A stretch of 64,000 bases of DNA, taken from positions 124,001 to 188,000 of the forward strand of contig NZ_CANLNH010000003.1 in the NCBI RefSeq assembly GCF_947492535.1, in the 5' to 3' direction. Each line of letters opens with the position of its first letter. Within the stretch, counting starts at the first letter, position 1. Both the position numbers and the translations under genes were made by a program. Origin of the DNA: an uncultured Dokdonia sp. (GTDB taxonomy: Bacteria > Bacteroidota > Bacteroidia > Flavobacteriales > Flavobacteriaceae). Under the pieces are notes generated by a model, which saw nothing but the letters and a program-made list of their open reading frames with translations, did not search any database and was not told the origin of the DNA. Of this stretch, positions 8,903 to 62,482 are shown one piece after another.

Positions 8903-8926
8903 TATACGCTTTCGCGAAAGCGTATA
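8903..8926. repeat. GCTTTCGCGAAAGC palindrome, intergenic
   Basis: Perfect 24-bp palindrome with core TACGCTTTCGCGAAAGCGTA, 50 bases after the kinase stop codon. It is the longest of the 11 copies in the window. There is no T-tract beside it, so it does not look like a simple terminator. Confidence 0.95.
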
Positions 8927-8985
8927 AAACAATATTCAAAATTATAAGTGTAGTTTTTGTTTAAAAGAACTTTTGTAAGTTTCTT

Positions 8986-9166
8986 AAAACAGAAAGTCCT
9001 TAAAAAAGCGCACAAAAAATTACGTGTTTCGGTATTCGAGCAACGGAAAATCATAAAAAAAGAGTACTAAAAAAATGTACTCTTTTTTTATGATAACTAC
9101 CCATCATTACAGTTTTGGTAATGGTATATACTATTTTAATTCTTACTTCGTTTTCGGTTGGAATAC
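8986..9166 (-). pseudogene. fahA 3'-end/terminator repeat, copy A (diverged, longer)
   Basis: This segment starts with AAAACAGAAAGT and ends in a copy of the last codons of fumarylacetoacetase (reverse strand KLLPVFQPKTK then stop; the copy of the gene tail runs to about 9183). Its middle differs from copies B and C and carries another hairpin. Only the gene tail is present, with no start, so it is a non-functional fragment. Confidence 0.85.
9050..9094. terminator. Bidirectional terminator-like hairpin
   Basis: Inverted repeat ATCATAAAAAAAGAGTAC ... GTACTCTTTTTTTATGAT with an 9-base A-rich loop, between the plus-strand kinase gene and minus-strand fahA. A and T runs on both arms suit termination from both sides. 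Confidence 0.75.
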
Positions 9167-9190
9167 TGGTAATAGTTTTGTAGGTTCCTT

Positions 9191-9314
9191 AAAACAGAAA
9201 GTTCTCATAAAAACGTATTGAAAAAATTACGCTTTTATGAGAACAACTACCCAATTACGGTTTTGGTAATGGTATATACTATTTTAATTCTTACTTCGTT
9301 TTCGGTTGGAATAC
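9191..9314 (-). pseudogene. fahA 3'-end/terminator repeat, copy B
   Basis: 124 bp matching 9339-9462 at all but about one position. It contains a 17-bp-stem hairpin (9201-9244, GTTCTCATAAAA paired with TTTTATGAGAAC), the spacer, the fahA stop codon at 9291-9293 and the last seven codons or so of fahA. Beyond 9314 the match ends. It is a partial tandem duplicate of the gene tail. Confidence 0.9.
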
Positions 9315-9338
9315 ATGAAGTAGCTTACGTCTAGCTAT

Positions 9339-9462
9339 AAAACAGAAAGTTCTCATAAAAACGTATTGAAAAAATTACGCTTTTATGAGAACAACTACCC
9401 AATTACGGTTTTGGTAATGGTATATGCTATTTTAATTCTTACTTCGTTTTCGGTTGGAATAC
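9339..9462 (-). repeat. fahA 3'-end/terminator repeat, copy C (the resident copy)
   Basis: This copy includes the true end of fahA (stop at 9439) and the hairpin 9349-9392 that probably terminates fahA. The unit matches copy B over 124 bp. Having three terminator units in a row downstream of one gene is unusual. Confidence 0.9.
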
Positions 9463-10731
9463 TGGTAATAGTTTTGTAGAAACTTCACCAAAACCGATAC
9501 GAGGAGAATCTTTTGTTTTACAATGTCCACGTATGATCACCGTATCATTATCTTCTATAAACTTACGATCACCACCTTCATCCAAACGTACAGGACGTTC
9601 TCCACGCCAAGAAAGTTCTAACATAGATCCATAGGAATCTGGCGTAGGGCCAGAAAGCGTTCCGCTACCCATCATATCTCCTGCATTTACAGGACATCCA
9701 TTTACGGTATGATGTGCCAACTGCTGACTCATATTCCAGTACATGTACTTAAAGTTTGATTTGGCTACGATCGTTTCCTTTTTACCTTCAGGTTGTAGTG
9801 CTACTTCTAATTTGATATCAAAACTCTTCTTTCCTTCATATTGTAAATAGGGAAGGAGTTCCTTTTTAGGTTTTGGACTCTCTACTCTAAAGGGTTCTAA
9901 GGCATCTAGTGTCACGATCCACGGAGAGATAGACGAAGCAAAATTCTTTGCTAAGAAAGGGCCTAATGGTACATATTCCCATTTCTGAATATCACGCGCA
10001 CTCCAGTCATTAAAGAGTACCAATCCAAATATATGTTCTTCGGCACAACTCACATCGATAGATTCTCCTAAGTGATTTGCTGCGGTTGTTATAAATGCCA
10101 TTTCTAATTCAAAATCTACCAAACGTGAAGGACCAAAAATTGGCTCTGTAGCGCCATTTGGTAATTTTTGTCCTTGTGGTCTGTGTACAGGAATTCCTGA
10201 AGGAATAATAGAAGAACTTCTACCATGATAGGCTACAGGTAAGTGTAACCAGTTAGGCATCAGTGCATTTTCTTCTCCTCTAAACATCGTTCCTACATTG
10301 GTTGCATGCTCGATACTAGAATAAAAATCGGTATAATCGCCTATTTGTACAGGAAGTTGCATCTCCACCTCACTCATATCAAAAATAACGGTATCACGGT
10401 GTTTTTCATTTTCGCGTAAAGCGGTATTATTTTCTTCAAAAATTTCAGAAATACGATTACGTACCAATCGCCATGTCTTACGACCATCGGCTATAAAGTC
10501 ATTTAATGTATCCTGTAAAAAGATATCATCTGTAAGAGGAATCCCTTCAAAATAACCTAGTTGGTGTAGTGCGCCTAGATCAATGGCATAGTCACCTATA
10601 CGCGTACCGATGGTAATTACATCGTCACGGGTAAGGAATACACCAAAGGGAATGTTCTGAATAGGGAAATCAGTGTTCTTGGCCGTTTTTAGCCAAGTTT
10701 TTCTCGTGGGGTCGTTAGCAGATAGTGGCAT
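9439..10731 (-). CDS. fahA: Fumarylacetoacetase (tyrosine catabolism)
   Basis: 430 residues, the normal length for fumarylacetoacetate hydrolase, which splits fumarylacetoacetate into fumarate and acetoacetate in the last step of tyrosine degradation. Family metal and catalytic motifs are present in order: DYTDFYSSIEHATNVG (metal Asp and catalytic His), DFELEMAF (two metal Glu), and LFNDWSARDIQKWEYVPLG (metal Asp), then the conserved MGSGTLSGP. It stands alone on the minus strand, divergent from glyA. No homogentisate dioxygenase gene is adjacent. Its 3' end has been copied twice downstream. Confidence 0.97.
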   Translation of the reverse strand: MPLSANDPTRKTWLKTAKNTDFPIQNIPFGVFLTRDDVITIGTRIGDYAIDLGALHQLGYFEGIPLTDDIFLQDTLNDFIADGRKTWRLVRNRISEIFEENNTALRENEKHRDTVIFDMSEVEMQLPVQIGDYTDFYSSIEHATNVGTMFRGEENALMPNWLHLPVAYHGRSSSIIPSGIPVHRPQGQKLPNGATEPIFGPSRLVDFELEMAFITTAANHLGESIDVSCAEEHIFGLVLFNDWSARDIQKWEYVPLGPFLAKNFASSISPWIVTLDALEPFRVESPKPKKELLPYLQYEGKKSFDIKLEVALQPEGKKETIVAKSNFKYMYWNMSQQLAHHTVNGCPVNAGDMMGSGTLSGPTPDSYGSMLELSWRGERPVRLDEGGDRKFIEDNDTVIIRGHCKTKDSPRIGFGEVSTKLLPVFQPKTK

Positions 10732-10769
10732 ATATGGTTCTTAATAAGGTGTTAGTAAATTTTGCTATC

Positions 10770-10795
10770 CAAATATAGGATTTTATAGTACTGCA
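10770..10795 (-). promoter_or_regulatory. Candidate Bacteroidota-type promoter of fahA
   Basis: On the minus strand TATATTTG (complement of 10770-10777) matches the -7 consensus TAnnTTTG about 40 bases before the fahA ATG. A TTG lies 16 bases farther upstream, a little short of the usual spacing to the -33 box. Confidence 0.5.
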
Positions 10796-10844
10796 ATAAA
10801 GACTTTATGTTATTTTTACAACTCTTTTTAACATAAGATATATT

Positions 10845-12119
10845 ATGCAACGCGACACAGCTATTTTTGATTTAATACAAGAAGAAAAAGAACGCCAATT
10901 AGATGGCTTAGAATTAATTGCTTCAGAAAACTTTGTGAGCGACCAAGTCATGGAAGCTGCAGGATCTGTACTCACAAATAAGTATGCAGAAGGATATCCA
11001 GGAAAACGTTATTATGGTGGGTGTCAAGTGGTAGATGAAGTAGAAACCATTGCTATAGAGCGTGCTAAAGAGCTTTTTGGTGCTGAGTACGCAAATGTAC
11101 AACCCCATTCCGGTTCTCAGGCTAATACAGCAGTTTTTCATGCCTGTTTAAAACCTGGAGATACGTTTTTAGGATTTGATCTTTCTCATGGTGGTCATTT
11201 AACACATGGATCTCCTGTTAACTTTTCAGGACGTTTATATAATCCTGTTTTTTATGGAGTAGAGAAGGAGACTGGGCGTTTAAATTATGATAAAATTCAA
11301 GAGATCGCTTTGCGCGAAAAACCAAAAATGATCATTGCCGGTGCGAGTGCGTATTCTCGTGAAATTGATTATGCACGCTTTCGCGAAATAGCAGACAGCG
11401 TCAATGCAATTCTTATGGCAGATATAGCGCATCCAGCTGGTTTGATCGCTAAAGGAATTATTTCTGATCCTATACCGCACTGTCATGTGGTTACAACTAC
11501 AACACATAAAACCCTTCGTGGTCCAAGAGGAGGACTTATCTTAATGGGGAAAGATTTTGAAAACCCATTTGGAATCACACTAAAAAGCGGAAAACCACGT
11601 ATGATGTCATCATTACTAGATAGTGGTATCTTCCCAGGAAATCAAGGGGGGCCTTTAGAGCATATCATTGCCGCCAAAGCAATTGCTTTTGGAGAAGCGC
11701 TTACAGATGAGTTCTTACATTATATGGTTCAAGTAAAGAAAAATGCTGAAGTAATGGCTGCTGGATTTGTAGCCAAAGGCTATGATATCATTTCTGGAGG
11801 AACCGATAATCATATGATGCTTATTGATCTTCGTAATAAAGATATCACAGGAAAAGCAGCAGAAGCAGCACTTGGAAAAGCAGATATTACAGTAAATAAA
11901 AATATGGTGCCTTTTGATGATAAATCGCCATTTGTTACTTCAGGAATTCGTATTGGTACTGCTGCAATCACGACCAGAGGATTGAAAGAAAATGATATGC
12001 AGACAATCGTAGACTTTATAGATGAAGCAATAATGAATCATGAGGATGATGCAGCACTTGAAGCTATTGCTAGTAAAGTAAATGCAATGATGGGTGATAA
12101 ACCGTTATTTGTAGCTTAA
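10845..12119 (+). CDS. glyA: Serine hydroxymethyltransferase
   Basis: 424 residues, typical length. It converts serine and tetrahydrofolate to glycine and 5,10-methylene-tetrahydrofolate, using pyridoxal phosphate. The PLP lysine is Lys222 in [16 protein letters not shown]; other family signatures are [24 protein letters not shown] and HSGSQAN. It is a single gene with a clear terminator 25 bases after the stop. Codons for ARFREIA at 11375-11388 contain a near match to the window-wide palindrome. That residue stretch is normal for the enzyme, so the match may be coincidental. Confidence 0.98.
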
Positions 12120-12141
12120 GTCTCATTACTATTTATAAAAT

Positions 12142-12166
12142 AAAAGCCCCTTTTTGGGGCTTTTTT
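12142..12166 (+). terminator. Rho-independent terminator of glyA
   Basis: AAAAGCCCC, a TTTTT loop, then GGGGCTTTTTT: a strong hairpin with a T-tract, 22 bases after the glyA stop. The remaining space to 12307 shows nothing else. Confidence 0.93.
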
Positions 12167-12307
12167 AGTGTTGTGTTTTACTTACTGATAAAGAGAAGTC
12201 AATCTTTATTAAAACATAGGTAACCGTAATATTAATAGCAAATTCTATCTCCATAGTAATATAGTATGTAAACTATCTAAAAGTAACGATACTATACCCT
12301 TCAAAAC

Positions 12308-12325
12308 ATACCCTCTTTAGGGTAT
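12308..12325. promoter_or_regulatory. ATACCC-N6-GGGTAT dyad, copy 1
   Basis: ATACCCTCTTTAGGGTAT, the most symmetrical of four related 18-bp dyads. As heptamers it reads TACCCTC-TT-TAGGGTA, the 7-2-7 layout of NarL-type operators. It abuts the stop codon of the solo LuxR gene, so here it could equally be a short 3' hairpin. Confidence 0.5.
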
Positions 12326-12709: not shown

Positions 12710-12743
12710 AGTTTAAAACTAGAGAGAATAAAGAGAAGATAAA

Positions 12744-12761: not shown

Positions 12762-12783
12762 TTGTGAAAAATACTTGTAAAAT

Positions 12784-13484: not shown

Positions 13485-14114
13485 TTAGAAATCGTATTTT
13501 TTTTCTACTGCGTATTTGAGTAGTTCGCCTTTTCCACTAAGACCTAGTTTTCGCATCATATTTTTACGATGTTTTTCTACGGTAGAAACGGCAGTAAATC
13601 GTACATCAGCGATTTCAGAAGAGGTTTTGTTTTGAGCGATGAGACGTAAGATTTCTCGTTCGCTTTTGGATAATACAGATTTAGGTGTTTTTGCTTTCGC
13701 GAAAGCGTTATTAAACAAACTTTGATCGATACCAGTATCATAGTATACGTTGCCTTTCATGACTGCATGTATGGCTTTTAGAAGTTCTTCTAGCGGACTA
13801 TTTTTAAGGATATACCCTTTGGCTCCAGCATCCCGCATTTGTATCACAGCTTGGTCCTGATCAAACATAGAAAACGCAATAACTTTGGTATGCGGATATT
13901 CTTTCATAATGATTTTGGTAGCCTCAATACCATCTAATTTTGGCATTCGAATGTCCATAATCACAACCTTAGGTTGCTTTAGCCGAACAATATCTAATAG
14001 ATCTCTACCATCATTTGAAGTGCCTATAATAGAAATTCCCTCTTCATATTTAAGAAGTAAGGCGATTCCATCTATAAGGGATTGATGATCTTCGGCAATG
14101 GCTACTGTAATCAT
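13485..14114 (-). CDS. NarL/FixJ-type response regulator
   Basis: 209 residues. The receiver domain has the acidic pair AEDH, phospho-acceptor Asp54 in VVIMDIRMP and Lys104 in YILKNS. The C-terminal LuxR helix-turn-helix starts near residue 147 (VLSKSEREILRLIAQNKTSSEIADVRFTAVSTVEKHRKNM). Between them the linker carries the residues AFAKA at 137-141, coded by a copy of the window-wide palindrome. It lies downstream of the TPR kinase gene (115 bases away), its probable partner, and is the best candidate to bind the nearby 7-2-7 dyads. Confidence 0.95.
   Translation of the reverse strand: MITVAIAEDHQSLIDGIALLLKYEEGISIIGTSNDGRDLLDIVRLKQPKVVIMDIRMPKLDGIEATKIIMKEYPHTKVIAFSMFDQDQAVIQMRDAGAKGYILKNSPLEELLKAIHAVMKGNVYYDTGIDQSLFNNAFAKAKTPKSVLSKSEREILRLIAQNKTSSEIADVRFTAVSTVEKHRKNMMRKLGLSGKGELLKYAVEKKYDF
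13693..13706. repeat. GCTTTCGCGAAAGC palindrome inside the NarL-type regulator gene
   Basis: Perfect 14-bp core within the linker between the receiver and HTH domains; read in the frame giving AFAKA. Confidence 0.95.
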
Positions 14115-20370: not shown

Positions 20371-20610
20371 TTATTTTTCAGTGTATACTTGCCCTCTGTG
20401 AGGTTTTAGGGCATCTCTTACGGGACGCATTTCATTTTCTTGGACTACGAGATAGGCAATACTGTGAAGTTCGCTAAGATTCTCTACTCCTGTGATTTGA
20501 GTTGTTAACGCTTTCGCGAAAGCGTACTCTTTCAAATGTATTTCATGATGCACAGCGGTTTTTGCACCTGCAGGCCCTCTAAAATCCCAAATGAGTTTTA
20601 AAAGTCTCAT
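20371..20610 (-). CDS. 79-aa protein coupled to purB
   Basis: No family recognised with certainty. The residues include LKLIWDFRGPAGAKTAVHHEIHL and a C-terminal EMRPVRDALKPHRGQVY; no signal peptide or membrane helix. Its ATG overlaps the purB stop by one base (TAATG), so it should be co-translated. Residues 30-34 are AFAKA, coded by the window-wide palindrome, so 5 of its 79 residues come from the repeat. It may be a small accessory protein of unknown role. Confidence 0.75.
   Translation of the reverse strand: MRLLKLIWDFRGPAGAKTAVHHEIHLKEYAFAKALTTQITGVENLSELHSIAYLVVQENEMRPVRDALKPHRGQVYTEK
20510..20523. repeat. GCTTTCGCGAAAGC palindrome inside the 79-aa gene
   Basis: 18-bp palindrome ACGCTTTCGCGAAAGCGT at 20508-20525, with the 14-bp core at the given positions; reading frame AFAKA. 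Confidence 0.95.
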
Positions 20611-23626: not shown

Positions 23627-24967
23627 TTAAATAAGTCCTTTTGCTTTGATTTCTAAATACTTATTGATAGTATTTACTGTAAGGTCTTCAGGCTTGGTTA
23701 AAATGGTTTGAATACCGTATTTGGCAAGTGTTTTGGCCATTACCTTTTTATCATAATCTGCTTTTTGAGCGATGGTTTTATGATATACTTCTTCGAGATT
23801 TTCTGCATGGGTCGTTAATAACGCGTCTAATTCTGTATTCTGAAAAAAGATGACCACCAATACATGCTTTCGCGAAAGCGCTTTTAAATAAATAAGCTGC
23901 CTTTCTAAAGCAGAGATATGTTCAAAATTTGTGTATAGCAACAGCAAACTACGCTGCGTCACTTTACGTTTAATTTGTGTATACAAGGTACCAAAATCAT
24001 TATCCAAAAACTTAGTATTGATATTATATAATACCTCTAGAATGGTATCCAGATGTGTTTTCTTACTACTGGCGGGTACATGATTTTTTATTGTCTCGGC
24101 AAACGTAAGGAGTCCTACCTTATCCTTTTTCTTTAAAGCAATGTTTGAAAAAGCCAATGTGCTATTAATAGCATAATCTAGTAATGTAAGTCCATTAAAA
24201 GGCATTTTCATGGTTCTACTAGCATCTATAATCGTATAGATAGGTTGTGCTTTTTCATCCTGAAACTGATTAACCATCAAGCTTGCTCGCTTTGCAGTTG
24301 CCTTCCAATTTATGGTACGTACATCATCGCCTATCACATAGTCTTTAATTTGTTCAAACTCCATCGTATGTCCAATACGACGTATTTTTTTCATACCGTA
24401 TAATGTCAATCTATTATCTAATGCAAGGAAAGCGTATTTTTTCATCTGGATAAAAGACGGGTATACTTTTACCATCTGATCTTTTTCAAAACGATAGCGA
24501 CGCTTTACAATGCCAATAGGGCTACTTACATATATGTTAAGGTGTCCAAATATATATTCGCCTCGTTCTACAGGGCGTAAGTTGTAGGCGTACTCTTGAA
24601 TTGATTTAGCAGGAATCGGGAATGTTTTTTTAAAATCTCTCTTTTGAAACTGAATAGGAATTTCATCGATGATGGTGACCGTAATTTCAAATGGATATTT
24701 ATTTTGAATTTTTACAATAAGTTCATTTAGATCACTATTTGAAAATTTTTCAGGAAGTAAGCGTTGTGCTTTTAGTTGTTCGCTTCCGCGAAAAAGTACT
24801 AAGCAGTCTACAAAGAAGACCACAGCCAATCCTAAACACAGGAGGTTTGCTATTGGAAATAGTCCATGATACCAATTTGAAATTAAGTATATAATTCCAA
24901 GAAAAGTAATTGCATAGAAAATTCTATTTCTTACAAATAAAGATTTTATGAAACGGATAAGTGCCAA
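23627..24967 (-). CDS. DUF58 protein (MoxR-associated)
   Basis: 446 residues. Two N-terminal membrane helices (about 14-32 and 37-54), a beta-rich region, then the DUF58 core with GDDVRTINWKATAKRASLMVNQF near 213-235 and a vWA-like fold (IYTIIDASRTM). DUF58 proteins accompany MoxR AAA+ ATPases in membrane-linked chaperone or assembly modules. It starts one base after the MoxR gene ends and is the last gene of the operon 29973-23627. A copy of the palindrome lies inside, here read as ALSRK rather than AFAKA. Confidence 0.92.
   Translation of the reverse strand: MALIRFIKSLFVRNRIFYAITFLGIIYLISNWYHGLFPIANLLCLGLAVVFFVDCLVLFRGSEQLKAQRLLPEKFSNSDLNELIVKIQNKYPFEITVTIIDEIPIQFQKRDFKKTFPIPAKSIQEYAYNLRPVERGEYIFGHLNIYVSSPIGIVKRRYRFEKDQMVKVYPSFIQMKKYAFLALDNRLTLYGMKKIRRIGHTMEFEQIKDYVIGDDVRTINWKATAKRASLMVNQFQDEKAQPIYTIIDASRTMKMPFNGLTLLDYAINSTLAFSNIALKKKDKVGLLTFAETIKNHVPASSKKTHLDTILEVLYNINTKFLDNDFGTLYTQIKRKVTQRSLLLLYTNFEHISALERQLIYLKALSRKHVLVVIFFQNTELDALLTTHAENLEEVYHKTIAQKADYDKKVMAKTLAKYGIQTILTKPEDLTVNTINKYLEIKAKGLI
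23866..23879. repeat. GCTTTCGCGAAAGC palindrome inside the DUF58 gene
   Basis: Perfect core, the only coding copy not read in the AFAKA frame: codons give A-L-S-R-K in KALSRKHVLVV. Confidence 0.95.
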
Positions 24968-31389: not shown

Positions 31390-31409
31390 TACGCTTTCGC
31401 GAAAGCGTA
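31390..31409. repeat. GCTTTCGCGAAAGC palindrome, intergenic
   Basis: Perfect 20-mer TACGCTTTCGCGAAAGCGTA, 35 bases after the TRIC-type gene and before its terminator. Confidence 0.95.
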
Positions 31410-33872: not shown

Positions 33873-34259
33873 ATGATACTAAAGCCTACGCTCGTTCTTG
33901 GAGCTTCCTTAAAATCCATCAGATATTCACACCTAGCGGTGCAACGATTACAAAAATATAATCATCCTGTTATTGCGGTAGGACTGCGTGCAGGGACTAT
34001 AGATGGTGTGGAGGTGATTACGTTTGAGTCCGCTTTCGCGAAAGCGGAAACAGATAGAAACACTATAGATACTGTTACTTTATACATTGGACCGAAGCAC
34101 CAACATCAATACATGGACTATGTGGTATCATTACAACCGAAACGTGTAATTTTTAATCCAGGCACAGAAAATCTTGAATTTTATACACTTCTGAAAGAAA
34201 ACAATATTGCTTTTGAAGTGGCGTGTACGTTAGTTCTTTTGGGTACGAATCAATACTAA
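33873..34259 (+). CDS. CoA-binding domain protein (YccU-like)
   Basis: 128 residues forming one Rossmann-like CoA-binding domain: TLVLGASLKSIRYSHLAVQRL at the nucleotide loop, HPVIAVGLRAGTIDGVEVI, TVTLYIGPKHQHQYMDYV and PKRVIFNPGTENLEF. Function in cells is not established. Residues 54-58 are AFAKA from the palindrome, placed in the loop between the third strand and the next, where family members usually have a shorter connection. Its 3' end overlaps the convergent symporter gene by 30 bases. Confidence 0.88.
   Translation: MILKPTLVLGASLKSIRYSHLAVQRLQKYNHPVIAVGLRAGTIDGVEVITFESAFAKAETDRNTIDTVTLYIGPKHQHQYMDYVVSLQPKRVIFNPGTENLEFYTLLKENNIAFEVACTLVLLGTNQY
34029..34048. repeat. GCTTTCGCGAAAGC palindrome inside the CoA-binding gene
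   Basis: Perfect 20-bp palindrome TCCGCTTTCGCGAAAGCGGA with CC/GG flanks instead of the TA...TA of the intergenic copies. Reading frame AFAKA. Confidence 0.95.
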
Positions 34260-38193: not shown

Positions 38194-38570
38194 TTTAATT
38201 AAGAATAACTTATTTACATCATCACCTAAAATACTATAAAAACAAATAACCTTCACGTTTACAGCTATTTTAAAGGTATATTATAATTATTATAAACGTT
38301 TATTTAGGATATAGGAAGTGCATCAATTATAACGAAGTGTAATTACCTCAAGCGCAATAAAGGCGCTAAAGAAAATAACGGATAATCGTACGCTTTCGCG
38401 AAAGCGTAAAAAGGAATAGTATCATTTTTAATTTTAGAATACGTCCCTATGCTAACTTTTGCTCATCCCTGAAATCTTAATTTTGAAATCAGTTAAAATT
38501 TAAAACGCTATCTATTTTCATTTTCCATTTTGACTTCGATTTCAAATTCCTTTTCCCTATTTTTATCACA
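38194..38570. other. Gap between TPR and DUF3810 genes
   Basis: 377 bases without a supported gene. Its one notable item is a perfect copy of the window-wide palindrome at 38389-38408. The AT-rich remainder probably holds the two divergent promoters; none is clear. Confidence 0.6.
38389..38408. repeat. GCTTTCGCGAAAGC palindrome, intergenic
   Basis: Perfect 20-mer TACGCTTTCGCGAAAGCGTA in the divergent region between the TPR gene and the DUF3810 gene. Confidence 0.95.
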
Positions 38571-44537: not shown

Positions 44538-46049
44538 ATGCGAGATACTCATTACATAAGTAGTGCAATCCTAGATCTGGCTACAATTTCTACGATTCTA
44601 CAAGAAAACAAACTCCTTGCGTTAAGCGAAGAAAGTCGTCATAATATTAATGCATCTAGAGCTTATTTAGATAAGAAGATAGAAGGAAACTCTAAACCCT
44701 TTTATGGTATTAATACGGGTTTTGGTAGTTTATGTAATGTTGCTATAAAAGATGAGCATCTTACGCAGTTACAAGAAAATTTAATGCGTTCTCATGCATG
44801 CGGTACAGGTGACTACGTACCTAAGTCTATTGTAAAGTTGATGATTTTATTAAAAGTACAATCGTTAAGCTATGGTCATAGTGGTGTACATATAGATACG
44901 GTAGAGCGTCTTATTGATTTTTATAATCTAGATATTCTTCCAGTAGTCTATACACAAGGTTCTTTAGGAGCTAGTGGGGATCTTGCACCATTAGCACATT
45001 TATCCTTACCATTAATTGGAGAAGGAATGGTATGGGAGGGCGATGAGCCCGCTTTCGCGAAAGCGGTATTAGAAAGACATCAATTGCGTCCGATACAGTT
45101 GAAATCTAAAGAAGGTTTAGCATTACTAAACGGAACGCAGTTTATGGTTGCATATGGACTAGATGCACTTTTGAAATGCCATAAGCTATCTTATCTGGCA
45201 GATATGATTGGAGCAATCTCTATAGACGCCTTCAATTGTAATCTTTCACCGTTTGATTCATTAGTGCATTATGTACGTCCACATAGAGGACAAATTAAAA
45301 CTGCCGAGCGTATTCAAGAGTTTCTTGCAGATAGTGAAATTGCTAAAACCGAAAAAGAAAACGTACAAGATCCCTATTCATTTAGATGTATACCTCAAGT
45401 GCATGGCGCTACAAAAGATGCTATTTTATATGCATCGAATACATTTAAAACAGAAATGAATAGTGTCACAGATAACCCTAACATTTTTGCGGCAGAAGAT
45501 AAGATCATAAGTGGTGGTAACTTTCATGGACAGCCATTAGCATTAGCATTAGATTTTCTTGCAATAGCCATGGCAGAAATAGGAAGTATTAGTGAACGTC
45601 GTACATATCAACTTATTAGTGGTCTTCGAGATTTACCTCCTTTTTTGGTAGACAATCCTGGACTACATAGTGGTATGATGATTCCACAATATACAGCAGC
45701 TAGTATTGTGAGTCAAAATAAACAATTAGCAACACCAGCAAGTGTAGATTCTATCGTATCATCAAATGGTCAAGAAGATCATGTGAGTATGGGAGCAAAT
45801 GCAGCTACCAAACTCTATAAAGTAGTAGAAAATATAGAAACTATTTTAGCAATAGAACTATTAAATGCATCACAAGCATTACACTTTAGAGCACCTTCAA
45901 AAACCTCTCCTTTTTTAGAGTCAATTATTAGCGCATATAGAACTGAAGTGCCTTTTGCTACTGAAGATAGAATCTTCTCTACAGATATTCATAAAACAAA
46001 AGAGTTTATGAATTCTATTCAAGTAGATACAGATATGATATTTAGGTAG
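44538..46049 (+). CDS. hutH: Histidine ammonia-lyase
   Basis: 503 residues. The MIO prosthetic group arises from Ala145-Ser146-Gly147 in GSLGASGDLAPLAHL; FYGINTGFGSL and NFHGQPLALALDF are further family marks. It removes ammonia from histidine to give urocanate. The rest of the hut pathway is not in the window. Residues 172-176 are AFAKA from the palindrome, in the surface segment EGDEPAFAKAVLERH. It overlaps the tail of the convergent 123-aa gene by eight bases. Confidence 0.92.
   Translation: MRDTHYISSAILDLATISTILQENKLLALSEESRHNINASRAYLDKKIEGNSKPFYGINTGFGSLCNVAIKDEHLTQLQENLMRSHACGTGDYVPKSIVKLMILLKVQSLSYGHSGVHIDTVERLIDFYNLDILPVVYTQGSLGASGDLAPLAHLSLPLIGEGMVWEGDEPAFAKAVLERHQLRPIQLKSKEGLALLNGTQFMVAYGLDALLKCHKLSYLADMIGAISIDAFNCNLSPFDSLVHYVRPHRGQIKTAERIQEFLADSEIAKTEKENVQDPYSFRCIPQVHGATKDAILYASNTFKTEMNSVTDNPNIFAAEDKIISGGNFHGQPLALALDFLAIAMAEIGSISERRTYQLISGLRDLPPFLVDNPGLHSGMMIPQYTAASIVSQNKQLATPASVDSIVSSNGQEDHVSMGANAATKLYKVVENIETILAIELLNASQALHFRAPSKTSPFLESIISAYRTEVPFATEDRIFSTDIHKTKEFMNSIQVDTDMIFR
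45049..45066. repeat. GCTTTCGCGAAAGC palindrome inside hutH
   Basis: 18-bp palindrome CCGCTTTCGCGAAAGCGG; reading frame AFAKA. Confidence 0.95.
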
Positions 46050-50160: not shown

Positions 50161-50180
50161 TACGCTTTCGCGAAAGCGTA
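50161..50180. repeat. GCTTTCGCGAAAGC palindrome, intergenic
   Basis: Perfect TACGCTTTCGCGAAAGCGTA in the divergent clpC/gyrA region, about 75 bases before the gyrA ATG. Its place between two divergent promoters is where a regulator could act on both. Confidence 0.95.
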
Positions 50181-50254: not shown

Positions 50255-52801
50255 ATGGCAGGAGGAGAAAAATTGATCCCAATTAATATTGAAGATGAAA
50301 TGAAGTCAGCGTACATCGATTATTCGATGTCGGTCATTGTGTCACGTGCATTACCCGATGTACGCGATGGTCTTAAACCTGTACACCGTAGAGTACTCTA
50401 TGGTATGCACGAGTTAGGTATTCGTGCGAGTGGTGCTCATAAGAAATCTGCAAGAATTGTAGGAGAAGTATTAGGAAAGTATCACCCACATGGAGATACA
50501 TCTGTATACGATGCAATGGTACGTATGGCTCAAGAATGGAGTTTACGTTATATGCTTATAGATGGTCAAGGGAATTTTGGTTCTGTAGATGGTGATAGTC
50601 CAGCTGCAATGCGTTATACAGAAGCACGTATGCGTAAGATATCAGAAGATATGCTTGCAGATATAGAAAAAGATACGGTAGATCATCAACTTAATTTTGA
50701 TGATACACTTTATGAGCCTAAAGTATTACCAACACGAGTACCTGGATTACTTATCAATGGCGCTTCAGGAATTGCGGTAGGAATGGCTACCAATATGCCT
50801 CCTCATAACTTGACAGAAGTTGTTAATGGAACAGTAGCTTATATTGAAAACAACGATATCGATATTGATGAGTTGATGCAACACGTAAAAGCTCCTGATT
50901 TCCCTACGGGAGGAACTATTTATGGATATGATGGCGTACGTGAAGCATTTAAAACTGGTCGTGGTCGTGTAGTGATGCGAGCTAAAGCGACCATAGAAGA
51001 AGTAAAAGGGCGTGAGTGTATAATCGTTACCGAAATACCATATCAGGTAAATAAAGCCGATATGATTAAGAAAACGGCAGATATGATCAACGATAAGAAA
51101 ATCGATGGTATTTCTGCGATACGGGATGAGTCTGATAGAAACGGAATGCGTATTGTATACGTTTTAAAAAGAGACGGTATTCCAAATATTGTTCTCAATA
51201 AATTATATAAGTATACAGCATTACAATCTTCATTTAGTGTAAATAATATAGCACTTGTAAATGGACGACCAGAAATGTTGAACCTTAAGGATATGATTCA
51301 CCATTTTGTGGAGCATCGTCATGTGGTAGTTGTACGTAGAACAAAATACGAACTTAAGAAAGCAGAAGATAGAGCACATATCCTTGAAGGATTAATTATT
51401 GCATCAGATAATATTGATGAAGTAATTGCTATTATACGAGGAAGCTCAAATGCAGATGAGGCTAGAGCAAACCTTATAGAACGTTTCAAACTCTCAGAAA
51501 TACAAGCAAAAGCGATTGTAGAAATGCGATTACGCCAGTTAACAGGTCTAGAACAAGACAAGTTACGTGCAGAGTTTGATGAGATTATGAAAACGATAGA
51601 AGATCTTAAAGATATTCTTGCAAGCAAGGAGCGTCGTATGAATATCATCAAAGAAGAACTGTTAGAAGTACAAAGAAAATATGGTGATGAGCGTCGCTCT
51701 GTTATAGAATATGCAGGAGGGGATGTAAGTATTACAGACCTTATTCCTGATGAAAAGGTAGTGATCACTATTTCTCATGCTGGGTATATTAAGCGTACGT
51801 CACTTACCGAATATAAAACTCAGAATAGAGGAGGTGTAGGACAAAAAGCATCTACAACACGTAATGAAGATTTCTTAGAACATCTTTTTGTAGGAACTAA
51901 TCATCAATATATGTTGTTCTTTACTCAGAAAGGAAAATGTTTCTGGATGCGTGTATTTGAAATTCCTGAAGGAAGTAAAACGTCTAAAGGAAGAGCTATT
52001 CAGAATCTGATTAATATAGAACAAGATGATAAAGTAAAAGCATTTGTTACTACGCAAGATCTCAAAGACGAGGAGTATGTAAATAGTAATTACATTATCA
52101 TGGCGACTAAGAAAGGGCAAGTGAAGAAAACATCACTTGAACAATACTCTCGTCCTAGAACAAATGGTATTAATGCAATTACTATTAAAGAGGGTGATGA
52201 GTTACTAGAAGCAAAACTTACAAATGGAGAGAGTCAAGTAATGCTTGCGGTTAAATCTGGGAAAGCTATTCGCTTTGAAGAAAGCAAGACTAGACCTATG
52301 GGTAGAGGCGCATCTGGTGTTCGTGGCATAACTCTTGCTAATGAGAATGACGAAGTCGTAGGAATGGTTTCTGTAAATGATGTAGAAAGTAATATTCTAG
52401 TGGTTTCAGAAAAAGGATATGGCAAGCGTAGTAGTCTTGAAGATTATCGTATTACGAATCGTGGAGGAAAAGGTGTAAAAACAATTTCTGTAACAGATAA
52501 GACAGGAGAACTCGTTGCCATTAAGAATGTAACAGATGATGATGATCTTATGATTATCAATAAGTCAGGGATCGCGATCCGTATGGAAGTTGCAGATTTA
52601 CGTGTCATGGGTAGAGCCACGCAAGGAGTAAAACTGATCAACTTAAAAGGAAGCGATTCTATTGCAGCTGTAGCCAAAGTAAAACATGATGAAGACGAAA
52701 TAGATGAAGATGATTTAGAAGGTACATCAGAAGCTACACAAGCAACTGAAGGACAAACTGATTCAACTCCAAACACAAATGCTTCTGAAGAAGAAGAATA
52801 A
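50255..52801 (+). CDS. gyrA: DNA gyrase subunit A
   Basis: 848 residues. The catalytic tyrosine is Tyr121 in [10 protein letters not shown]; the quinolone-determining segment reads [19 protein letters not shown]. The C-terminal wrapping domain carries a GyrA box variant, QNRGGVGQ, and six blade-like repeats (GKGVK, MGRGA, etc.). It ends with an acidic tail ([18 protein letters not shown]) as in many Bacteroidota. With GyrB it negatively supercoils DNA. It is followed 60 bases later by the TPR gene. Confidence 0.98.
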
Positions 52802-55856: not shown

Positions 55857-57137
55857 ATGAAAAACACCTCACTATCAGAACATGCACATTCAGAAATTGT
55901 AGAAAAGCTAAAAACACTTCTCAATAAAAATGAAGATATGCGCATTGCATTGTTAGCCTCTTTACAAGCGGCTAATAATTCGGCACAAGAAAGTTTAAAT
56001 AAAGACCTTTACAAGGCTATTAATAACGAGTTTAAAGGAAATGGATGGCCAGTTACTATCGAATCTTATTTTGATTATTTAGATCTTTATGTACGACTTG
56101 TACCTAATGAAACAAATGATCCTAATTATCCTAACGCTTGGAAGAGTAATGGAGAAGAAAATGGATATAATCAAAAAGTCTATGATTTACTATGTCAGTT
56201 TTATTGGTTAGTAGATCAGAAAGTACCTAATACAACAATTACATTACAAAGTTTTGACGATTTTGCAGCTTGGTTAGTAGAGTTTGCAAAAGCCTGGGGA
56301 CGTTTCTTAGATACCAAACCGTCGTTAACCAAAGAGAGTTTACATTCTTTTAAATATGATTCTATGTATAATTATCCTTTATATGCAGCAAATGAATCAA
56401 GTTGGAATACCTTTAATACCTTCTTCTATAGAGAGTTTAATAATGCAAATCCTGAAACGGGTATATCACCATTGCGTCCAATTGCGGCCCCTGATACTAA
56501 TGAGACCATTGTTGCTCCAGCAGATTGCACGTTTAAAGAAGACTATCCTATTGATTCAGAAGGAAATGTATTAGACACAGAAGGGCAGAAAACAAAAATC
56601 AAATTTAAGCAAACGCATACCATAGGTACCGTTAATGAGCTGCTAGATAATAGTGAGTATGCCAAAGACTTTTATGGAGGAACCTTTGTACATTATTTCT
56701 TAAGCCCTTTTGACTACCATCGTTTTCATACCCCTGTAAGCGGAAAGATCTTAGAGATTAAAGCACTTCAAGGCAAGGTTTTTCTTAATGTAAACTTGAC
56801 AGAGGATGGACAATGGGATGCACCAGATGGAGCAGAAGATGGTTATGAGTTTAACCAAGCGCGTGGTCTTGTCATTGTAGATGCAGGACCCGTAGTAGGT
56901 AAAGTGGCTATACTGCCTATAGGAATGGCTCAAGTGTCTGGGGTAGAAATGTACACAAAACTTCAAGGGCAAACAGTTGTAAAAGGTCAAGAATTTGGGA
57001 AATTCAAATTTGGAGGATCAGATATTATTATGTTATTTGAGAAAAAACCAAACGATCTCTATATGTTTAAGAAAGATCCTGCGCATAACCCTATTCATTT
57101 TCAATATGGACAGACAGCTGTTTACTGGAATAAATAG
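55857..57137 (+). CDS. Phosphatidylserine decarboxylase-like proenzyme
   Basis: 426 residues. A helical N-terminal domain of about 170 residues, related to those of fungal and some bacterial PSD-like proteins, is followed by the PSD fold: FYGGTFVHYFLSPFDYHRFHTPVSG, the central strands, and the self-cleavage site FKFGGSDIIMLFEKK. The GGS in place of the textbook LGST gives the pyruvoyl serine in many relatives. The substrate may be phosphatidylserine or another amino acid ester. A palindrome lies eight bases after the stop. Confidence 0.88.
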   Translation: MKNTSLSEHAHSEIVEKLKTLLNKNEDMRIALLASLQAANNSAQESLNKDLYKAINNEFKGNGWPVTIESYFDYLDLYVRLVPNETNDPNYPNAWKSNGEENGYNQKVYDLLCQFYWLVDQKVPNTTITLQSFDDFAAWLVEFAKAWGRFLDTKPSLTKESLHSFKYDSMYNYPLYAANESSWNTFNTFFYREFNNANPETGISPLRPIAAPDTNETIVAPADCTFKEDYPIDSEGNVLDTEGQKTKIKFKQTHTIGTVNELLDNSEYAKDFYGGTFVHYFLSPFDYHRFHTPVSGKILEIKALQGKVFLNVNLTEDGQWDAPDGAEDGYEFNQARGLVIVDAGPVVGKVAILPIGMAQVSGVEMYTKLQGQTVVKGQEFGKFKFGGSDIIMLFEKKPNDLYMFKKDPAHNPIHFQYGQTAVYWNK

Positions 57138-57144: not shown

Positions 57145-57164
57145 TACGCTTTCGCGAAAGCGTA
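57145..57164. repeat. GCTTTCGCGAAAGC palindrome, intergenic
   Basis: Perfect TACGCTTTCGCGAAAGCGTA immediately after the PSD-like gene and before its terminator. Confidence 0.95.
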
Positions 57165-59353: not shown

Positions 59354-59490
59354 CCTAGTGTTTGAATTACTATGTGTTAGTGTATGGTTCTTTGCGTGTC
59401 TTAAACACTAAAGTTAGCAAATACATGCTGAATAGAAAATTCGCGAGAATTTTCAGAAGTAGGTAATAAGAATAAATTAATAGACATAGT

Positions 59491-60180
59491 TTATTTCCTA
59501 AAAATCACTTTATGTATTTTCAATTCAATTTTTGTTCCATCAATTCCTGTTCTTTCCATAAAATGCGTGCCCATTGATTTTCCGATATCAATTTTTTCTA
59601 TTCTCGAAAAATAATATTCGGCATCTCTCTCTGAAAATTTTTTAAATGACACCCATTTTAAATCTCTAATATTTTTAGCGAATTCCTTCCCGGTTATTGG
59701 TTCAATTTCTTTGACGATTCCTATTTCAGAGGGTAATTCTGATTCAGTTCCGTTAAAGAAGTGCATACTTTTTCGAACTCTCTTTTTTGCTTTAAATCCA
59801 TAAGGTGCAGGAATTAACAGCTCTCCATTTTTTGTATAATTATTGTTTCCGTATTCAGAACTTGAAAACAGAGCTTTTGTATAAACTTTATTTTCGATTT
59901 GTTGGAAATTCAAAGGTATTTTGAAAGGATTTTTAGAGTCCATTTGTTTACTTTCTATTTCCAATTCTAAATCACAGTTTTCGGGCAAATTCATTGTTAC
60001 TTCACAATCACAAAACGCACCATTCAATTCTAAAATATCAGTTAAATCGGCTTTATTAATTTCATTTTTTTTAGCCCATTCAAAAGTGTTTTTGTATGAG
60101 TGATCACAACCATTTTTTTTAATTTTATTTTCTATATAAACACAAAGCTTAATGACTTGATTTTCTGTTAATATGGTCAT
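59491..60180 (-). CDS. DUF2695-like N-terminus fused to an unknown domain
   Basis: 229 residues. Residues about 1-65 (LCVYIENKIKKNGCDHSYKNTFEWAK, then LELNGAFCDCEVTMNLPENCDL) match the pattern of DUF2695, a small family with a conserved CDCEV. The remaining 160 residues, including PYGFKAKKRVRKSMHFFNGTESELP, are not familiar. There is no signal peptide or membrane helix. Function unknown; the fusion is the unusual part. Confidence 0.65.
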   Translation of the reverse strand: MTILTENQVIKLCVYIENKIKKNGCDHSYKNTFEWAKKNEINKADLTDILELNGAFCDCEVTMNLPENCDLELEIESKQMDSKNPFKIPLNFQQIENKVYTKALFSSSEYGNNNYTKNGELLIPAPYGFKAKKRVRKSMHFFNGTESELPSEIGIVKEIEPITGKEFAKNIRDLKWVSFKKFSERDAEYYFSRIEKIDIGKSMGTHFMERTGIDGTKIELKIHKVIFRK

Positions 60181-60335
60181 TTTTCAAGTTGTGGTTAATG
60201 GTCTCGGCTATGATTTCGTTTTGGAGTCATCCACAAGATTAATTTGCCGAAATCCAGATGTTTGATTTATAATTTTATTTTAATTGAGCCTATTTGTTTA
60301 TGAATCAATTTTTTAGAGTATAGTGACATTAAATA

Positions 60336-60809
60336 TTAACCTGGGATTTGAGCTCTCAGTATTTTTTCGTAGCCGCTAATTAGTTTACTTAGCCATTCTG
60401 AGGGTTCATGTGGTCTAATAATAATTTCTAATTTTGCGGTAGCTAAGGGTTCGTTTTTTTCCGAAAAAGCGCCGCTTTTCGAAGCAGATGTGCCTGAACT
60501 GAAACTAACCATTAATTCATCGTTTTTAATATCAATGTCTAAGGTTGTTGTAAATTTCAACTCATCAATAGCTGAAGAATTAATAGGCACCATCGTAATT
60601 AAAGGAACTTTTATATCTACGGATTCGACTTTACCGTCTACGGTGGTAGATGGATAATCTATGTTGAAGGTTTTAGCAGTATACTTTTTAGTTTCAGGAT
60701 CGTAATCAAAGAAATCTTTAATAATCTTTCTTTCATTATCCGCTATATTTTGATTGGCCTGTTTGGCTGCTTCATTGATGGATTCTACTAGTTCTTTAAA
60801 CTTAATCAT
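60336..60809 (-). CDS. DUF2589 protein
   Basis: 157 residues. The DUF2589 marks are present: an N-terminal helix FKELVESINEAAKQANQN, then VDIKVPLITMVPINSSAIDELKFTTTLDI and a C-terminal AKLEIIIRPHEPSEWLSKLISGYEKIL. Members form beta-sandwich-like proteins of unknown role, often in small gene groups. No partner gene of the usual DUF2589 clusters is next to it. Confidence 0.85.
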   Translation of the reverse strand: MIKFKELVESINEAAKQANQNIADNERKIIKDFFDYDPETKKYTAKTFNIDYPSTTVDGKVESVDIKVPLITMVPINSSAIDELKFTTTLDIDIKNDELMVSFSSGTSASKSGAFSEKNEPLATAKLEIIIRPHEPSEWLSKLISGYEKILRAQIPG

Positions 60810-60837
60810 GATCTTATTGTTTTTTTTAAAGCGTTTG

Positions 60838-60890
60838 TTTTTAATGTTGCCTAACGGTTTTATACACCGTGTTGTAGCAAGTTATTTTTC
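60838..60890. other. Cassette-like spacer between small genes
   Basis: The spacer holds GCCTAACGGTTTTATACACC, followed by GTGTTGTAGC; AACGGT and ACCGT are inverted. Related but looser words occur at 37577-37600 (GCACATAACGTTTAGTATAT) and 61336-61362. The spacer recalls recombination spacers of gene-cassette arrays, but the match to integron attC sites is weak. Confidence 0.3.
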
Positions 60891-61328
60891 TTTTAACATT
60901 TCTATTTTTCGAATTTCTCTTTCACTATTAAATTTCAACAACCATTTTTTTGGAATATAACTTTCAAAAAACTCCCATTTGTCAGACTTTAATTCCGTCT
61001 TTCTAAGTTTCTTAATAATCATATTCAGATGGTGAATATTCCAAGACCAAAACTCTATATCTCTTATTTTTGTTTTTAGCCATAAATCAAATTCTTTAAG
61101 TTCATCCCAATTTAATTCAGCTCGGAAAGTACAATCCATACAAATGAGGTTCCATTTTTTTTCAAAATCCGAAATATCCATAAAATGCTCAATTTCTTCG
61201 GGAGCATTTTGATTTGTCGCAATTATTTTAGACTTACACTTTTTACATTTAAGTTCAACCGTTTTTGGATAATGCATATGAGCATATTTTATATGTGTTT
61301 TTCCTCCATTATTAATTGAACTATTCAT
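60882..61328 (-). CDS. 148-aa protein with a zinc-ribbon-like Cys cluster
   Basis: Soluble protein. CKKCKSKI near 28-35 and a later CMDC near 63-66 form a CxxC...CxxC pair that probably binds zinc. The rest is helical and aromatic-rich (WNIHHLNMIIKKLRKTELK, EFFESYIPKKWLLKFN). The family is not recognised. Last gene of the second small-gene run. Confidence 0.7.
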   Translation of the reverse strand: MNSSINNGGKTHIKYAHMHYPKTVELKCKKCKSKIIATNQNAPEEIEHFMDISDFEKKWNLICMDCTFRAELNWDELKEFDLWLKTKIRDIEFWSWNIHHLNMIIKKLRKTELKSDKWEFFESYIPKKWLLKFNSEREIRKIEMLKEK

Positions 61329-61732
61329 TTTCTTTGCTTTTTGCCAACATCAGTATAAAGCTAATATACAATTTTATATATGCTACCTATACAGGATCAA
61401 TAGGCTATCAAAAGGTTTTACAATCAATAGAAATAACTAAAAAATGCTAGGGTATCAAAAGGTTTAAAAAAAAATCAAAGATGATCGGCGCCCCGTACAG
61501 CTAATGATAAAAATTGTACTTTAAAATATGAATATTGTATACTCGTCTTACTTCTTGATCCCTTTTCGCGAAAGCGGAATTTTAAAAAGGGAATATTGAA
61601 AATAGCCTATAGAGAAGAGAACAAAGGAAAAGAATCTAATAACTAGCGATTACTAAAGTTTAGCTAAATTATTGTGTGTGTGGAATTCTGAAATAGATTC
61701 GAATTTATTATAGAAATCAGTGTGATAAAAAA
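61329..61732. other. Gap before the NlpC/P60 gene
   Basis: 404 bases without a supported gene. It contains two ATCAAAAGGTTT words about 40 bases apart and an incomplete palindrome copy TTTTCGCGAAAGCGGAA at 61563-61579, with left-hand bases lost. A GTGTGAT/ATCACAC hairpin at 61720-61738 runs into the stop of the next gene and has no T-tract. Confidence 0.6.
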
Positions 61733-62482
61733 TCACACCACCTTCTTAATCACCCGTAGTTTATGGGTGTGTTTCTTTTGGTGTACATTATAGATGCCAG
61801 AATGATCTAAACGATCTATGCGCACTTCGCCGTGCGCGTGGATGATATAGTTATCTTCCATGATGAGACCTACATGAACAATGGCGCCTTCATCATTATC
61901 AAAAAAGGCAAGATCTCCTGGTTCGCTTTCTTCTATAAAACTAAGGGCTTCCCCTTGTGTTGCCTGTTCAGAAGCATCGCGTAGTAATCGGTGACCATTC
62001 AATCTGTATACCATTTGTGTAAATCCAGAACAGTCAATCCCAAAAGGCGTACGGCCGCCCCATAAATATGGCGTGTTTAAATACTGTAATGCGGTTTCAA
62101 TGAGAAGGGTTTTGTCTTTTTTACCAGAGGTAGTAGGTCCTTCATAGGTGCTTTTTAATAGTGAAAGCGTATGAACAGACGTTCCCAAAAGAACGGTTTG
62201 TAATTGCCCGTGAGCATCAGATATGAATTGTACAGGATCTGAGATGAGTGAAGGAGTTTCTGCTTTCGCGAAAGCGTATTCCTCTTCACTGATCTCTTGA
62301 TACTGTTTATTATCGATCCACCCTACATAATTGTCATGTGCCAAACGAATACGACTCCAAGATTTCCTTTTTTCAGGTACCTTAAAGACTTCTCCATATA
62401 GAAGTTGATTCACCATCTCACTACGATCAGAAGGTTCTAATCGCATGGGGATGCTACTTAAATGACATATGCCGTATTTCAT
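61733..62482 (-). CDS. NlpC/P60 endopeptidase with SH3 domains
   Basis: 249 residues. An SH3-like domain (about 1-65) and a second SH3-like part come before the NlpC/P60 domain. The catalytic residues are Cys151 (GIDCSGFTQMVY), His203 (VHVGLI) and a third polar residue in the HAHGEV segment. The usual substrate is the D-glutamyl-diamino acid bond in peptidoglycan. There is no signal peptide, so it is probably cytoplasmic and recycles muropeptides. Residues 70-74 are AFAKA from the palindrome, in the linker between the first and second domains. It starts 18 bases after the thiolase stop. Confidence 0.92.
   Translation of the reverse strand: MKYGICHLSSIPMRLEPSDRSEMVNQLLYGEVFKVPEKRKSWSRIRLAHDNYVGWIDNKQYQEISEEEYAFAKAETPSLISDPVQFISDAHGQLQTVLLGTSVHTLSLLKSTYEGPTTSGKKDKTLLIETALQYLNTPYLWGGRTPFGIDCSGFTQMVYRLNGHRLLRDASEQATQGEALSFIEESEPGDLAFFDNDEGAIVHVGLIMEDNYIIHAHGEVRIDRLDHSGIYNVHQKKHTHKLRVIKKVV
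62262..62275. repeat. GCTTTCGCGAAAGC palindrome inside the NlpC/P60 gene
   Basis: Perfect core in the interdomain linker; reading frame AFAKA (EEYAFAKAETPS). Confidence 0.95.

What the first reader, a model, noticed from the sequence alone, without database searches (positions are those of the whole stretch)
8903..62275. Eleven copies of a perfect palindrome, core GCTTTCGCGAAAGC, across the window
I count 11 exact 14-bp cores: 8908, 13693, 20510, 23866, 31393, 34032, 38392, 45051, 50164, 57148 and 62262. A chance 14-mer would be expected far less than once in 64 kb of AT-rich DNA. Five copies are intergenic and share the 20-mer TACGCTTTCGCGAAAGCGTA (24 bp at 8903). Six are in genes. Degenerate copies (11375, 61563, 63857) suggest turnover. 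It has no transposase or T-tract. Options: a dispersed palindromic element (as HIP1 in cyanobacteria or Rickettsia palindromic elements), a nucleoid-protein or repair-protein site, or a methylation target.
Basis: seen in the sequence. Interest (0 to 1): 0.75.

Follow-up and report, generated by a model that had tools for sequence, protein, structure and literature searches.

The report
Evenly spaced genome-wide palindrome in Dokdonia
A 14-letter palindrome is kept at hundreds of regularly spaced places around the chromosomes of Dokdonia and two other flavobacterial genera, which points to an undescribed chromosome-wide DNA-handling system whose machinery is still unknown.

Summary
All 11 cores are exact, and the genome holds 827 copies against 0 of the reversed control. 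The genus is Dokdonia, identified by exact chromosome lengths of congeners. All 17 congeners searched carry 369-905 copies; of 237 genera sampled in the family only two others do; outside the family no Bacteroidota genome sampled has more than one.

It is not a mobile element or hairpin. Sites stay at orthologous positions (14 of 16 alignable ones kept against 1.0 expected) and change by substitution, in one gene together with amino-acid changes. About 22% of Dokdonia sites lack one outer GC, almost none both.

Around the core lie two roughly 17-bp arms, GT-rich and C-poor on the 5' side of each strand, with 3-bp phasing, whatever the direction of transcription. Sites exclude each other: 15 gaps under 1 kb against 65.6 expected. 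Some temperate phages carry them.

None of four protein families tested as partners tracks them. My best guess is a two-way Chi-like recombination/repair site (about 0.35); a nucleoid-protein site or an uptake-like signal remain possible.

The parts
8903..8926 (.). full site, 24-bp perfect palindrome, core 8908-8921, intergenic
11377..11390 (.). half site (inner TTTCGCGAAA plus one outer GC), inside a serine hydroxymethyltransferase gene (10845-12119 +)
13693..13706 (.). full site, inside a response-regulator gene (13485-14114 -)
20508..20525 (.). full site, 18-bp palindrome, intergenic
23866..23879 (.). full site, inside a DUF58 gene (23627-24967 -); the same place is a full site in 8 and a one-change site in 4 of the 12 Dokdonia genomes compared
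31390..31409 (.). full site, 20-bp palindrome, intergenic
34029..34048 (.). full site, 20-bp palindrome, inside a CoA-binding-domain gene (33873-34259 +)
38389..38408 (.). full site, 20-bp palindrome, intergenic between divergent ORFs
45049..45066 (.). full site, 18-bp palindrome, inside an aromatic amino acid lyase gene (44538-46049 +)
50161..50180 (.). full site, 20-bp palindrome, intergenic; its core ends 77 bp before the 848-aa ORF at 50255 (ClpC-like by recall, no family search)
57145..57164 (.). full site, 20-bp palindrome, intergenic; its core starts 10 bp after the ORF ending at 57137
61562..61575 (.). half site (one outer GC), between ORFs
62262..62275 (.). full site, inside an NlpC/P60 gene (61733-62482 -); 700 bp from the half site at 61562, an exception to the spacing rule

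Best explanation
SHOWN: a genome-wide recognition site in double-stranded DNA. The minimal unit is GCTTTCGCGAAA; the usual form is the overlap of two opposite units (GCTTTCGCGAAAGC), framed by two independent arms of about 17 bp that are GT-rich and C-poor on the 5' side of each strand and phased every 3 bp. The core is held by strong purifying selection; sites are spaced more evenly than chance and rarely lie within 1 kb of each other. INFERRED: a factor common to Dokdonia and two other genera reads the core from either side, and a filament-forming protein with a 3-nucleotide step (RecA is the obvious candidate) engages the arm 5' of the core on the strand that is kept. On this view it is a two-way, Chi-like recombination/repair site: a helicase-nuclease resecting a break meets a site within a few kilobases in either direction and hands over a RecA-favoured 3' end. 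The factor has not been found, and no recombination was measured.
For: Abundance and taxonomic range. Constraint confined to the core: 1.4-1.7% divergence in the central 15 bp against 7.7-15.4% in the next 19 bp (three genome pairs); 14 of 16 alignable cores kept against 1.0 expected. At least one outer GC nearly always present: 307 both, 87 one, 3 neither in Dokdonia; 99, 5, 0 in g11; 67, 21, 1 in g210. Arms: GT 0.663 and C 0.070 in Dokdonia (228 sites), 0.676 and 0.067 in g11 (97 sites), against 0.525-0.553 and 0.120-0.144 further out, and 0.50-0.51 and 0.16-0.18 beside three other palindromes. 3-bp phasing in 168 pooled intergenic sites, p=0.002 for T and 0.009 for GT. Even spacing and mutual exclusion. 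RecA prefers TG-rich trinucleotide repeats and groups DNA in threes (PMC3763553, passages). A RecB-like helicase gene exists in one g11 genome.
Against: Known Chi sites are asymmetric and strand-biased (recalled); the 22 one-GC sites sampled in G016 show no orientation bias (11:11; small sample). PMC3763553 reports that RecA does not nucleate preferentially on Chi or on a TG-rich repeat, and its reference list names papers explaining GT-rich islands round E. coli Chi by codon usage, though here the bias is also intergenic. The 3-bp phasing is weaker in the smaller sets (intergenic G000 T p=0.16; g210 p about 0.1; g11 T p=0.10, GT p=0.04), and in g210 arms are weaker and one-GC sites do not show the stronger arm on the intact side. 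The g11 RecB-like gene scores below NCBIfam's curated cut-offs and was not found in the Dokdonia stretches held, about 10-15% of each main genome. No divergence signal of recombination around sites.
Confidence: 0.35

Rival explanations
1. Binding site of a chromosome-organising (nucleoid) protein: a dimer holds the dyad and contacts both arms, and sites at regular intervals anchor loops or a scaffold.
For: Dyad symmetry independent of transcription; independent arms; 4-8 sites in every one of 25 sampled bins of the D. donghaensis chromosome; mutual exclusion; presence in some temperate phage genomes.
Against: No second ParB-type protein in 9 of 10 carrier genomes, so not a Noc-like case. A 3-bp phased arm is unusual for helix-turn-helix or HU-type proteins (inference).
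Confidence: 0.27
2. A self-DNA uptake signal (like USS/DUS) accumulated by uptake bias and recombination.
For: Origin by substitution in place, reading-frame preference (57:24:22) and intergenic preference, even spacing, extended flanks. Even spacing of Haemophilus and Neisseria uptake sequences is recalled, not looked up.
Against: No T2SSE-family secretion/uptake ATPase over cut-off in 6 of 10 carrier genomes. Known uptake sequences are not palindromic (recalled). Temperate phages can carry several sites, and two phage contigs about 64% identical have one at the same place.
Confidence: 0.17
3. HIP1-like: an orphan methyltransferase modifies the core and methyl-directed mismatch repair creates or keeps sites.
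For: Palindromic and highly iterated. The HIP1 model in PMC4390886 (passages) says that once most nucleotides lie within 1000 nt of a site, a further site would not alter repair, which would fit the exclusion seen here.
Against: C5 methyltransferases (PF00145) are absent from 6 of 10 carriers and present in 8 of 15 other genomes; PF01555 is over cut-off in only 2 of 10 carriers. A 12-14-bp core is long for a methyltransferase (inference). Other methyltransferase classes were not tested.
Confidence: 0.1
4. A mobile or inserted palindromic element (REP, Rickettsia palindromic element).
For: Dispersed copies, intergenic more often than expected (59 of 162 against about 18).
Against: Where orthologues align, those without a site differ by substitutions, not by a clean gap; positions are conserved in the distant pair; 103 of 162 copies lie in genes. 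Sites with unalignable surroundings could not be judged (16 of 34 for G016 against G006).
Confidence: 0.02
5. An RNA or DNA hairpin (terminator, mRNA stabiliser).
For: The 20-mer folds with 8 bp, better than all but 2 of 200 shuffles; some copies lie close after gene ends.
Against: Arms do not pair copy by copy beyond position 3, apart from two marginal pairs at 13 and 15; the pattern is the same in both orientations relative to transcription; the 14-mer folds no better than shuffles.
Confidence: 0.03

Closest known systems
HIP1 (GCGATCGC) of cyanobacteria (PMC4390886, passages read)
   Same: Short palindrome far above chance across a genome, linked by its author to a mutation-driven origin.
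   Different: Sequence, host and length (14-20 bp against 8); extended arms and mutual exclusion here; no matching C5 or PF01555 methyltransferase.
Chi sites (GCTGGTGG and analogues; recalled, plus PMC3763553 passages)
   Same: High density of an exact word (about one per 3-7 kb here); TG-rich context.
   Different: Chi is asymmetric and strand-biased (recalled); this is palindromic, with the GT-rich arm on each strand.
DNA uptake sequences USS/DUS (recalled)
   Same: Over-representation, even spacing, extended flanks, frame preference (for USS/DUS all recalled).
   Different: Palindromic; no T2SSE-family ATPase over cut-off in 6 of 10 carriers; present in some temperate phages.
18-bp palindrome of Caldithrix abyssi (PMC5317091, passages read)
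   Same: Long, rather uniformly distributed palindromic word with 14 conserved positions.
   Different: 38 exact copies, related to REP by its authors, 13 of 38 overlapping CDSs that they judge misannotated, strand-specific centre, no conservation outside 18 bp.
parS/Noc-type palindromes (recalled)
   Same: Similar length and TTTC...GAAA layout.
   Different: Different register and copy number; no regional bias in the bins sampled; no extra ParB in 9 of 10 carriers.

Membership tests
HIP1 | Highly iterated palindrome far above chance | tested here: met
   827 copies; 68 in 400 kb against 0.0006 expected
HIP1 | Sequence GCGATCGC | tested here: not met
   the word is GCTTTCGCGAAAGC
HIP1 | Co-occurring orphan methyltransferase of the inner sequence | tested here: inconclusive
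   PF00145 absent in 6 of 10 carriers, PF01555 over cut-off in 2 of 10; other classes not tested
REP / Rickettsia palindromic element | Extra DNA present relative to empty orthologues | tested here: not met
   for the sites that could be aligned
REP / Rickettsia palindromic element | Long paired stem | tested here: not met
   arms not complementary copy by copy beyond about 20 bp
REP / Rickettsia palindromic element | Associated transposase (RAYT) | not tested
   no search made
Uptake sequence (USS/DUS) | Over-represented, in-place origin, even spacing | tested here: met
Uptake sequence (USS/DUS) | DNA-uptake motor (PilB/ComGA, T2SSE family) | tested here: not met
   over cut-off in 4 of 10 carriers and 1 of 18 others
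Uptake sequence (USS/DUS) | Preferential uptake of site-bearing DNA | not testable with these tools
   needs a transformation assay
Chi site | Over-represented exact word at one per few kb | tested here: met
   one per 3.2-7.5 kb
Chi site | Orientation bias along replichores | tested here: inconclusive
   full sites have no orientation; 22 one-GC sites 11:11; ori and ter were not located
Chi site | Recognition by RecBCD/AddAB/AdnAB | not testable with these tools
   a RecB-like gene seen in one g11 genome, below NCBIfam cut-offs; not found in the partial Dokdonia DNA held
Noc/parS-type | Dedicated ParB-family paralogue | tested here: not met
   one PF02195 match in 9 of 10 carriers, two in the tenth
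Noc/parS-type | Origin- or terminus-biased distribution | tested here: not met
   4-8 sites in each of 25 bins of the D. donghaensis chromosome, 20 of them spread round it; ori and ter not located

The most novel reading that the evidence does not exclude
A new class of chromosome-wide element: two overlapping, oppositely oriented directional sites (GT-rich 3-bp-phased arm + GCTTTCGCGAAA), spaced by selection with mutual exclusion within about 1 kb, serving as two-way loading sites for a recombinase-type filament. It occurs in three flavobacterial genera that did not group together in a one-gene tree, and some temperate phages carry it too.
Probability: 0.28. Interest if true: 0.92.

Novelty: new variant of a known kind. 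Interest (0 to 1): 0.78.

Why it matters
Only a few short words are known to be maintained chromosome-wide in bacteria (Chi, uptake sequences, HIP1), and HIP1's role is still argued over (my recall). This word is longer, has readable arms and a measurable spacing rule, and sits in a cultured, studied marine genus (Dokdonia, used for proteorhodopsin work; two of its strains were sequenced on PacBio). It makes the question of why a genome would keep a signal every few kilobases directly testable. It may also mark DNA that has passed through these hosts, as in the islands seen in other genera.

Tried and rejected
Mobile element and hairpin readings: rejected on alignments, copy-by-copy pairing and transcription-oriented logos. 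Sites without alignable surroundings were left out of the conservation counts: 2 of 24 (G006 to G008), 2 of 24 (G008 to G006), 0 of 24 (G006 to G009), 1 of 24 (G009 to G006), 8 of 24 (G006 to G016), 16 of 34 (G016 to G006).

Four protein families tested as trans-acting partners gave no match: PF00437 (28 genomes), PF00145, PF02195, PF01555.

Other over-represented palindromes in relatives: in 80 named loci (1.66 Mb; the 80 kept of 590 found) five held a 10-bp palindrome three or four times, none a 12- or 14-bp one; four of these five words were counted across the loci and were not frequent elsewhere except the AT-rich AAAAGCTTTT. TTTCGCGAAA occurs 0 times there.

Recombination signal in divergence around sites: none beyond the core; divergence is somewhat lower more than 1.5 kb from sites in parts of the comparison, which I did not explain. 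RecB-like gene in Dokdonia: not found in the stretches held; a 947-aa ORF in L413 first taken for AddB has CarboxypepD_reg-like domains instead.

Literature: the 14-mer is in no held paper; TTTCGCGAAA is in ten whose titles look unrelated (listing only). Topical searches showed nothing on this word in their listings, several of which were cut to the top 15-20. Only openly licensed PubMed Central papers were searched, so a report elsewhere is possible.
Full report
1. Observation. All eleven GCTTTCGCGAAAGC cores are at the stated places. The window is G000:C3:124001-188000 of a 4.86-Mb assembly that holds 827 copies and 0 of the reversed pattern. In a separate 400-kb stretch there are 68, where a third-order Markov model expects 0.0006. 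In the window there are 11 full sites and 2 with a single outer GC.

2. Which organism. Contig lengths of four congeners, 3,623,447, 3,389,993, 3,305,093 and 3,293,944, equal those published for Dokdonia sp. Dokd-P16, 4H-3-7-5, PRO95 (PMC13151707, part 1 of 2 read) and D. donghaensis DSW-1 (PMC4974333, whole text).

3. Range. All 17 congeners searched carry 369-905 copies. Of 397 Flavobacteriaceae genomes, 80 have any copy, but only six, in three genera (g1 = Dokdonia, g11, g210), have hundreds (408-857); the other 74 have 1-19. Of 395 Bacteroidota genomes, the window's own included, 22 have a copy; outside this family eight have one each and none more. In the outside carriers that I fetched (G029, G118, G127, G141, G254, G376) copies often sit close together in stretches that align between genera; in G118, by my reading of the ORF translations, that is a heavy-metal-resistance cluster with sites inside genes. 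Pairs 933 bp apart recur in G118, G127, G141, G200 and G254. I read these as transferred DNA. In a quick ClpC tree g210 falls near Dokdonia and Leeuwenhoekiella, and g11 with Mesonia, Salegentibacter and Christiangramia; the forks have modest support and rest on one gene.

4. Made and lost in place. Between close Dokdonia genomes 19 of 22, 21 of 24 and 20 of 23 aligned cores are identical, where flanking 14-mers of the same alignments predict 4.8, 10.2 and 4.5; against the more distant G016, 14 of 16, 13 of 15 and, in the other direction, 14 of 18, where 1.0, 1.0 and 1.1 are predicted. Sites without alignable surroundings were left out (16 of 34 for G016 to G006). Lost sites mostly show one to a few substitutions. 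Divergence is 1.4-1.7% in the central 15 bp and 7.7-15.4% in the next 19. In the DUF58 gene at 23627-24967, 8 of 12 Dokdonia genomes have the exact site and 4 have one synonymous change that leaves a one-GC site; of 16 genomes of other genera, 12 encode A-I-A/S-K at that place where Dokdonia encodes A-L-S-R. None of those 16, the four g11 and g210 carriers included, has a site there, so the site arose within the Dokdonia line and altered a conserved protein stretch.

5. Anatomy. One-mismatch variants fall almost only on the outer GC (27 of 31). The inner TTTCGCGAAA has both GCs in 307 cases, one in 87 and neither in 3 (Dokdonia, orthologous copies of related genomes included); 99, 5, 0 in g11; 67, 21, 1 in g210. 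The minimal unit is therefore GCTTTCGCGAAA. Outside the core, 257 Dokdonia sites show a C-poor, GT-rich arm on the 5' side of each strand, ending near position -19. After removing look-alikes, arms are 66.3% GT and 7.0% C in Dokdonia (228 sites) and 67.6% and 6.7% in g11 (97 sites); flanks of three other palindromes show no such bias. The two arms of a site are uncorrelated (r = -0.13 and -0.06) and do not pair (exceptions at position 2 and marginally at 3, 13 and 15). The bias is the same when sites are turned by transcription, so it is a property of double-stranded DNA. T peaks at -4, -7, -10, -13, -16. The 3-bp signal is significant in 168 pooled intergenic sites (p = 0.002 for T) and in each whole Dokdonia set, weaker in g11 and not significant in g210. 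In Dokdonia one-GC sites the arm is stronger on the side that kept its GC (C 9.2% against 15.2%; 61 de-duplicated sites); in g210 (21 sites) it is not, GT being slightly higher on the other side.

6. Spacing. In D. donghaensis 25 bins of 20 kb (20 spread round the chromosome, 5 adjacent) hold 4-8 sites each, variance/mean 0.26, lower-tail p = 1e-4; g11 0.22, p = 2e-4; G000 0.45, p = 0.02; g210 0.58, p = 0.05. Counting full and one-GC sites, with positions redrawn within genes and between genes separately, 15 gaps are under 1 kb where 65.6 (sd 6.0) are expected (five blocks). One-GC sites avoid full sites: 6 of 55 within 1 kb against 21.5 expected. The 20-kb variance test on full plus one-GC sites reaches p < 0.05 in only two of the five blocks, both g11.

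7. Phages. The viral-contig scan stopped at 120 stretches. I took 20 records: 16 chosen for several copies have 2-7 (51 in 382 kb by my sum), and 4 chosen singles have 1. Some of the 16 overlap or are near-identical. Pieces with several copies show host-like flanks, whereas GC-rich single matches do not. Among the proteins scanned are terminase, portal, capsid and tape-measure proteins, three integrases and a Mu-type transposase. Two contigs about 64% identical share a site at the same place. A Nonlabens phage (35,000 of 35,700 bases) and a Winogradskyella phage have none; whether Nonlabens itself carries the site is not known.

8. Partners tested. Secretion/uptake ATPases are over cut-off in 4 of 10 carriers, C5 methyltransferases in 4 of 10, PF01555 methyltransferases in 2 of 10, and an extra ParB-type protein in 1 of 10. 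None explains the site.

9. Mechanism. Constraint, dyad form, spacing and transcription-independence are shown. A function with limited reach along DNA is the natural reading, since a second site nearby is rarely kept. GT-rich arms in steps of three recall RecA, which prefers TG-rich trinucleotide repeats and groups DNA in threes; the same paper finds no preferred nucleation at Chi (PMC3763553, passages). The arm lies 5' of the core on each strand, the segment a Chi-type enzyme would keep (recalled). I commit to a two-way Chi-like site at about 0.35. A nucleoid-protein site is close behind; an uptake signal is weakened by the missing motor, and a HIP1-like methyl site by the two missing families. 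No recombination, binding or methylation data were available.

10. Known kinds. HIP1 (PMC4390886, passages) and the C. abyssi palindrome (PMC5317091, passages) are the nearest published analogues that I saw; the passages mention neither arms nor an exclusion rule of this kind for them. No held paper contains the 14-mer.

Noticed in passing
L116:2735, L134:10350, L187:10000: In three related phage contigs a full or one-GC site lies 0-7 bp after the stop codon of the integrase gene; it could be part of an attP site or just a favoured gene end.
   Followed up: partly
L290-L300 (other Flavobacteriaceae genera): Stretches that align between genera carry the sites; in L290 they look like a metal-resistance cluster by my reading of the ORFs, and a pair 933 bp apart recurs in five genomes, so the palindrome may mark transferred DNA.
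   Followed up: partly
L413:15090-18245 (g11 genome G281): A RecB-like helicase of about 1050 aa with no AddB- or RecC-like protein among the four neighbouring ORFs scanned.
   Followed up: partly
G116, G326, G091: Three genomes of two other genera have 16-19 copies, more than other non-host genera; not examined for islands.
   Followed up: no
G000:C1:244066-269721: A 25.7-kb gap without any full site, the largest in that 400-kb stretch; may be recently acquired DNA.
   Followed up: no
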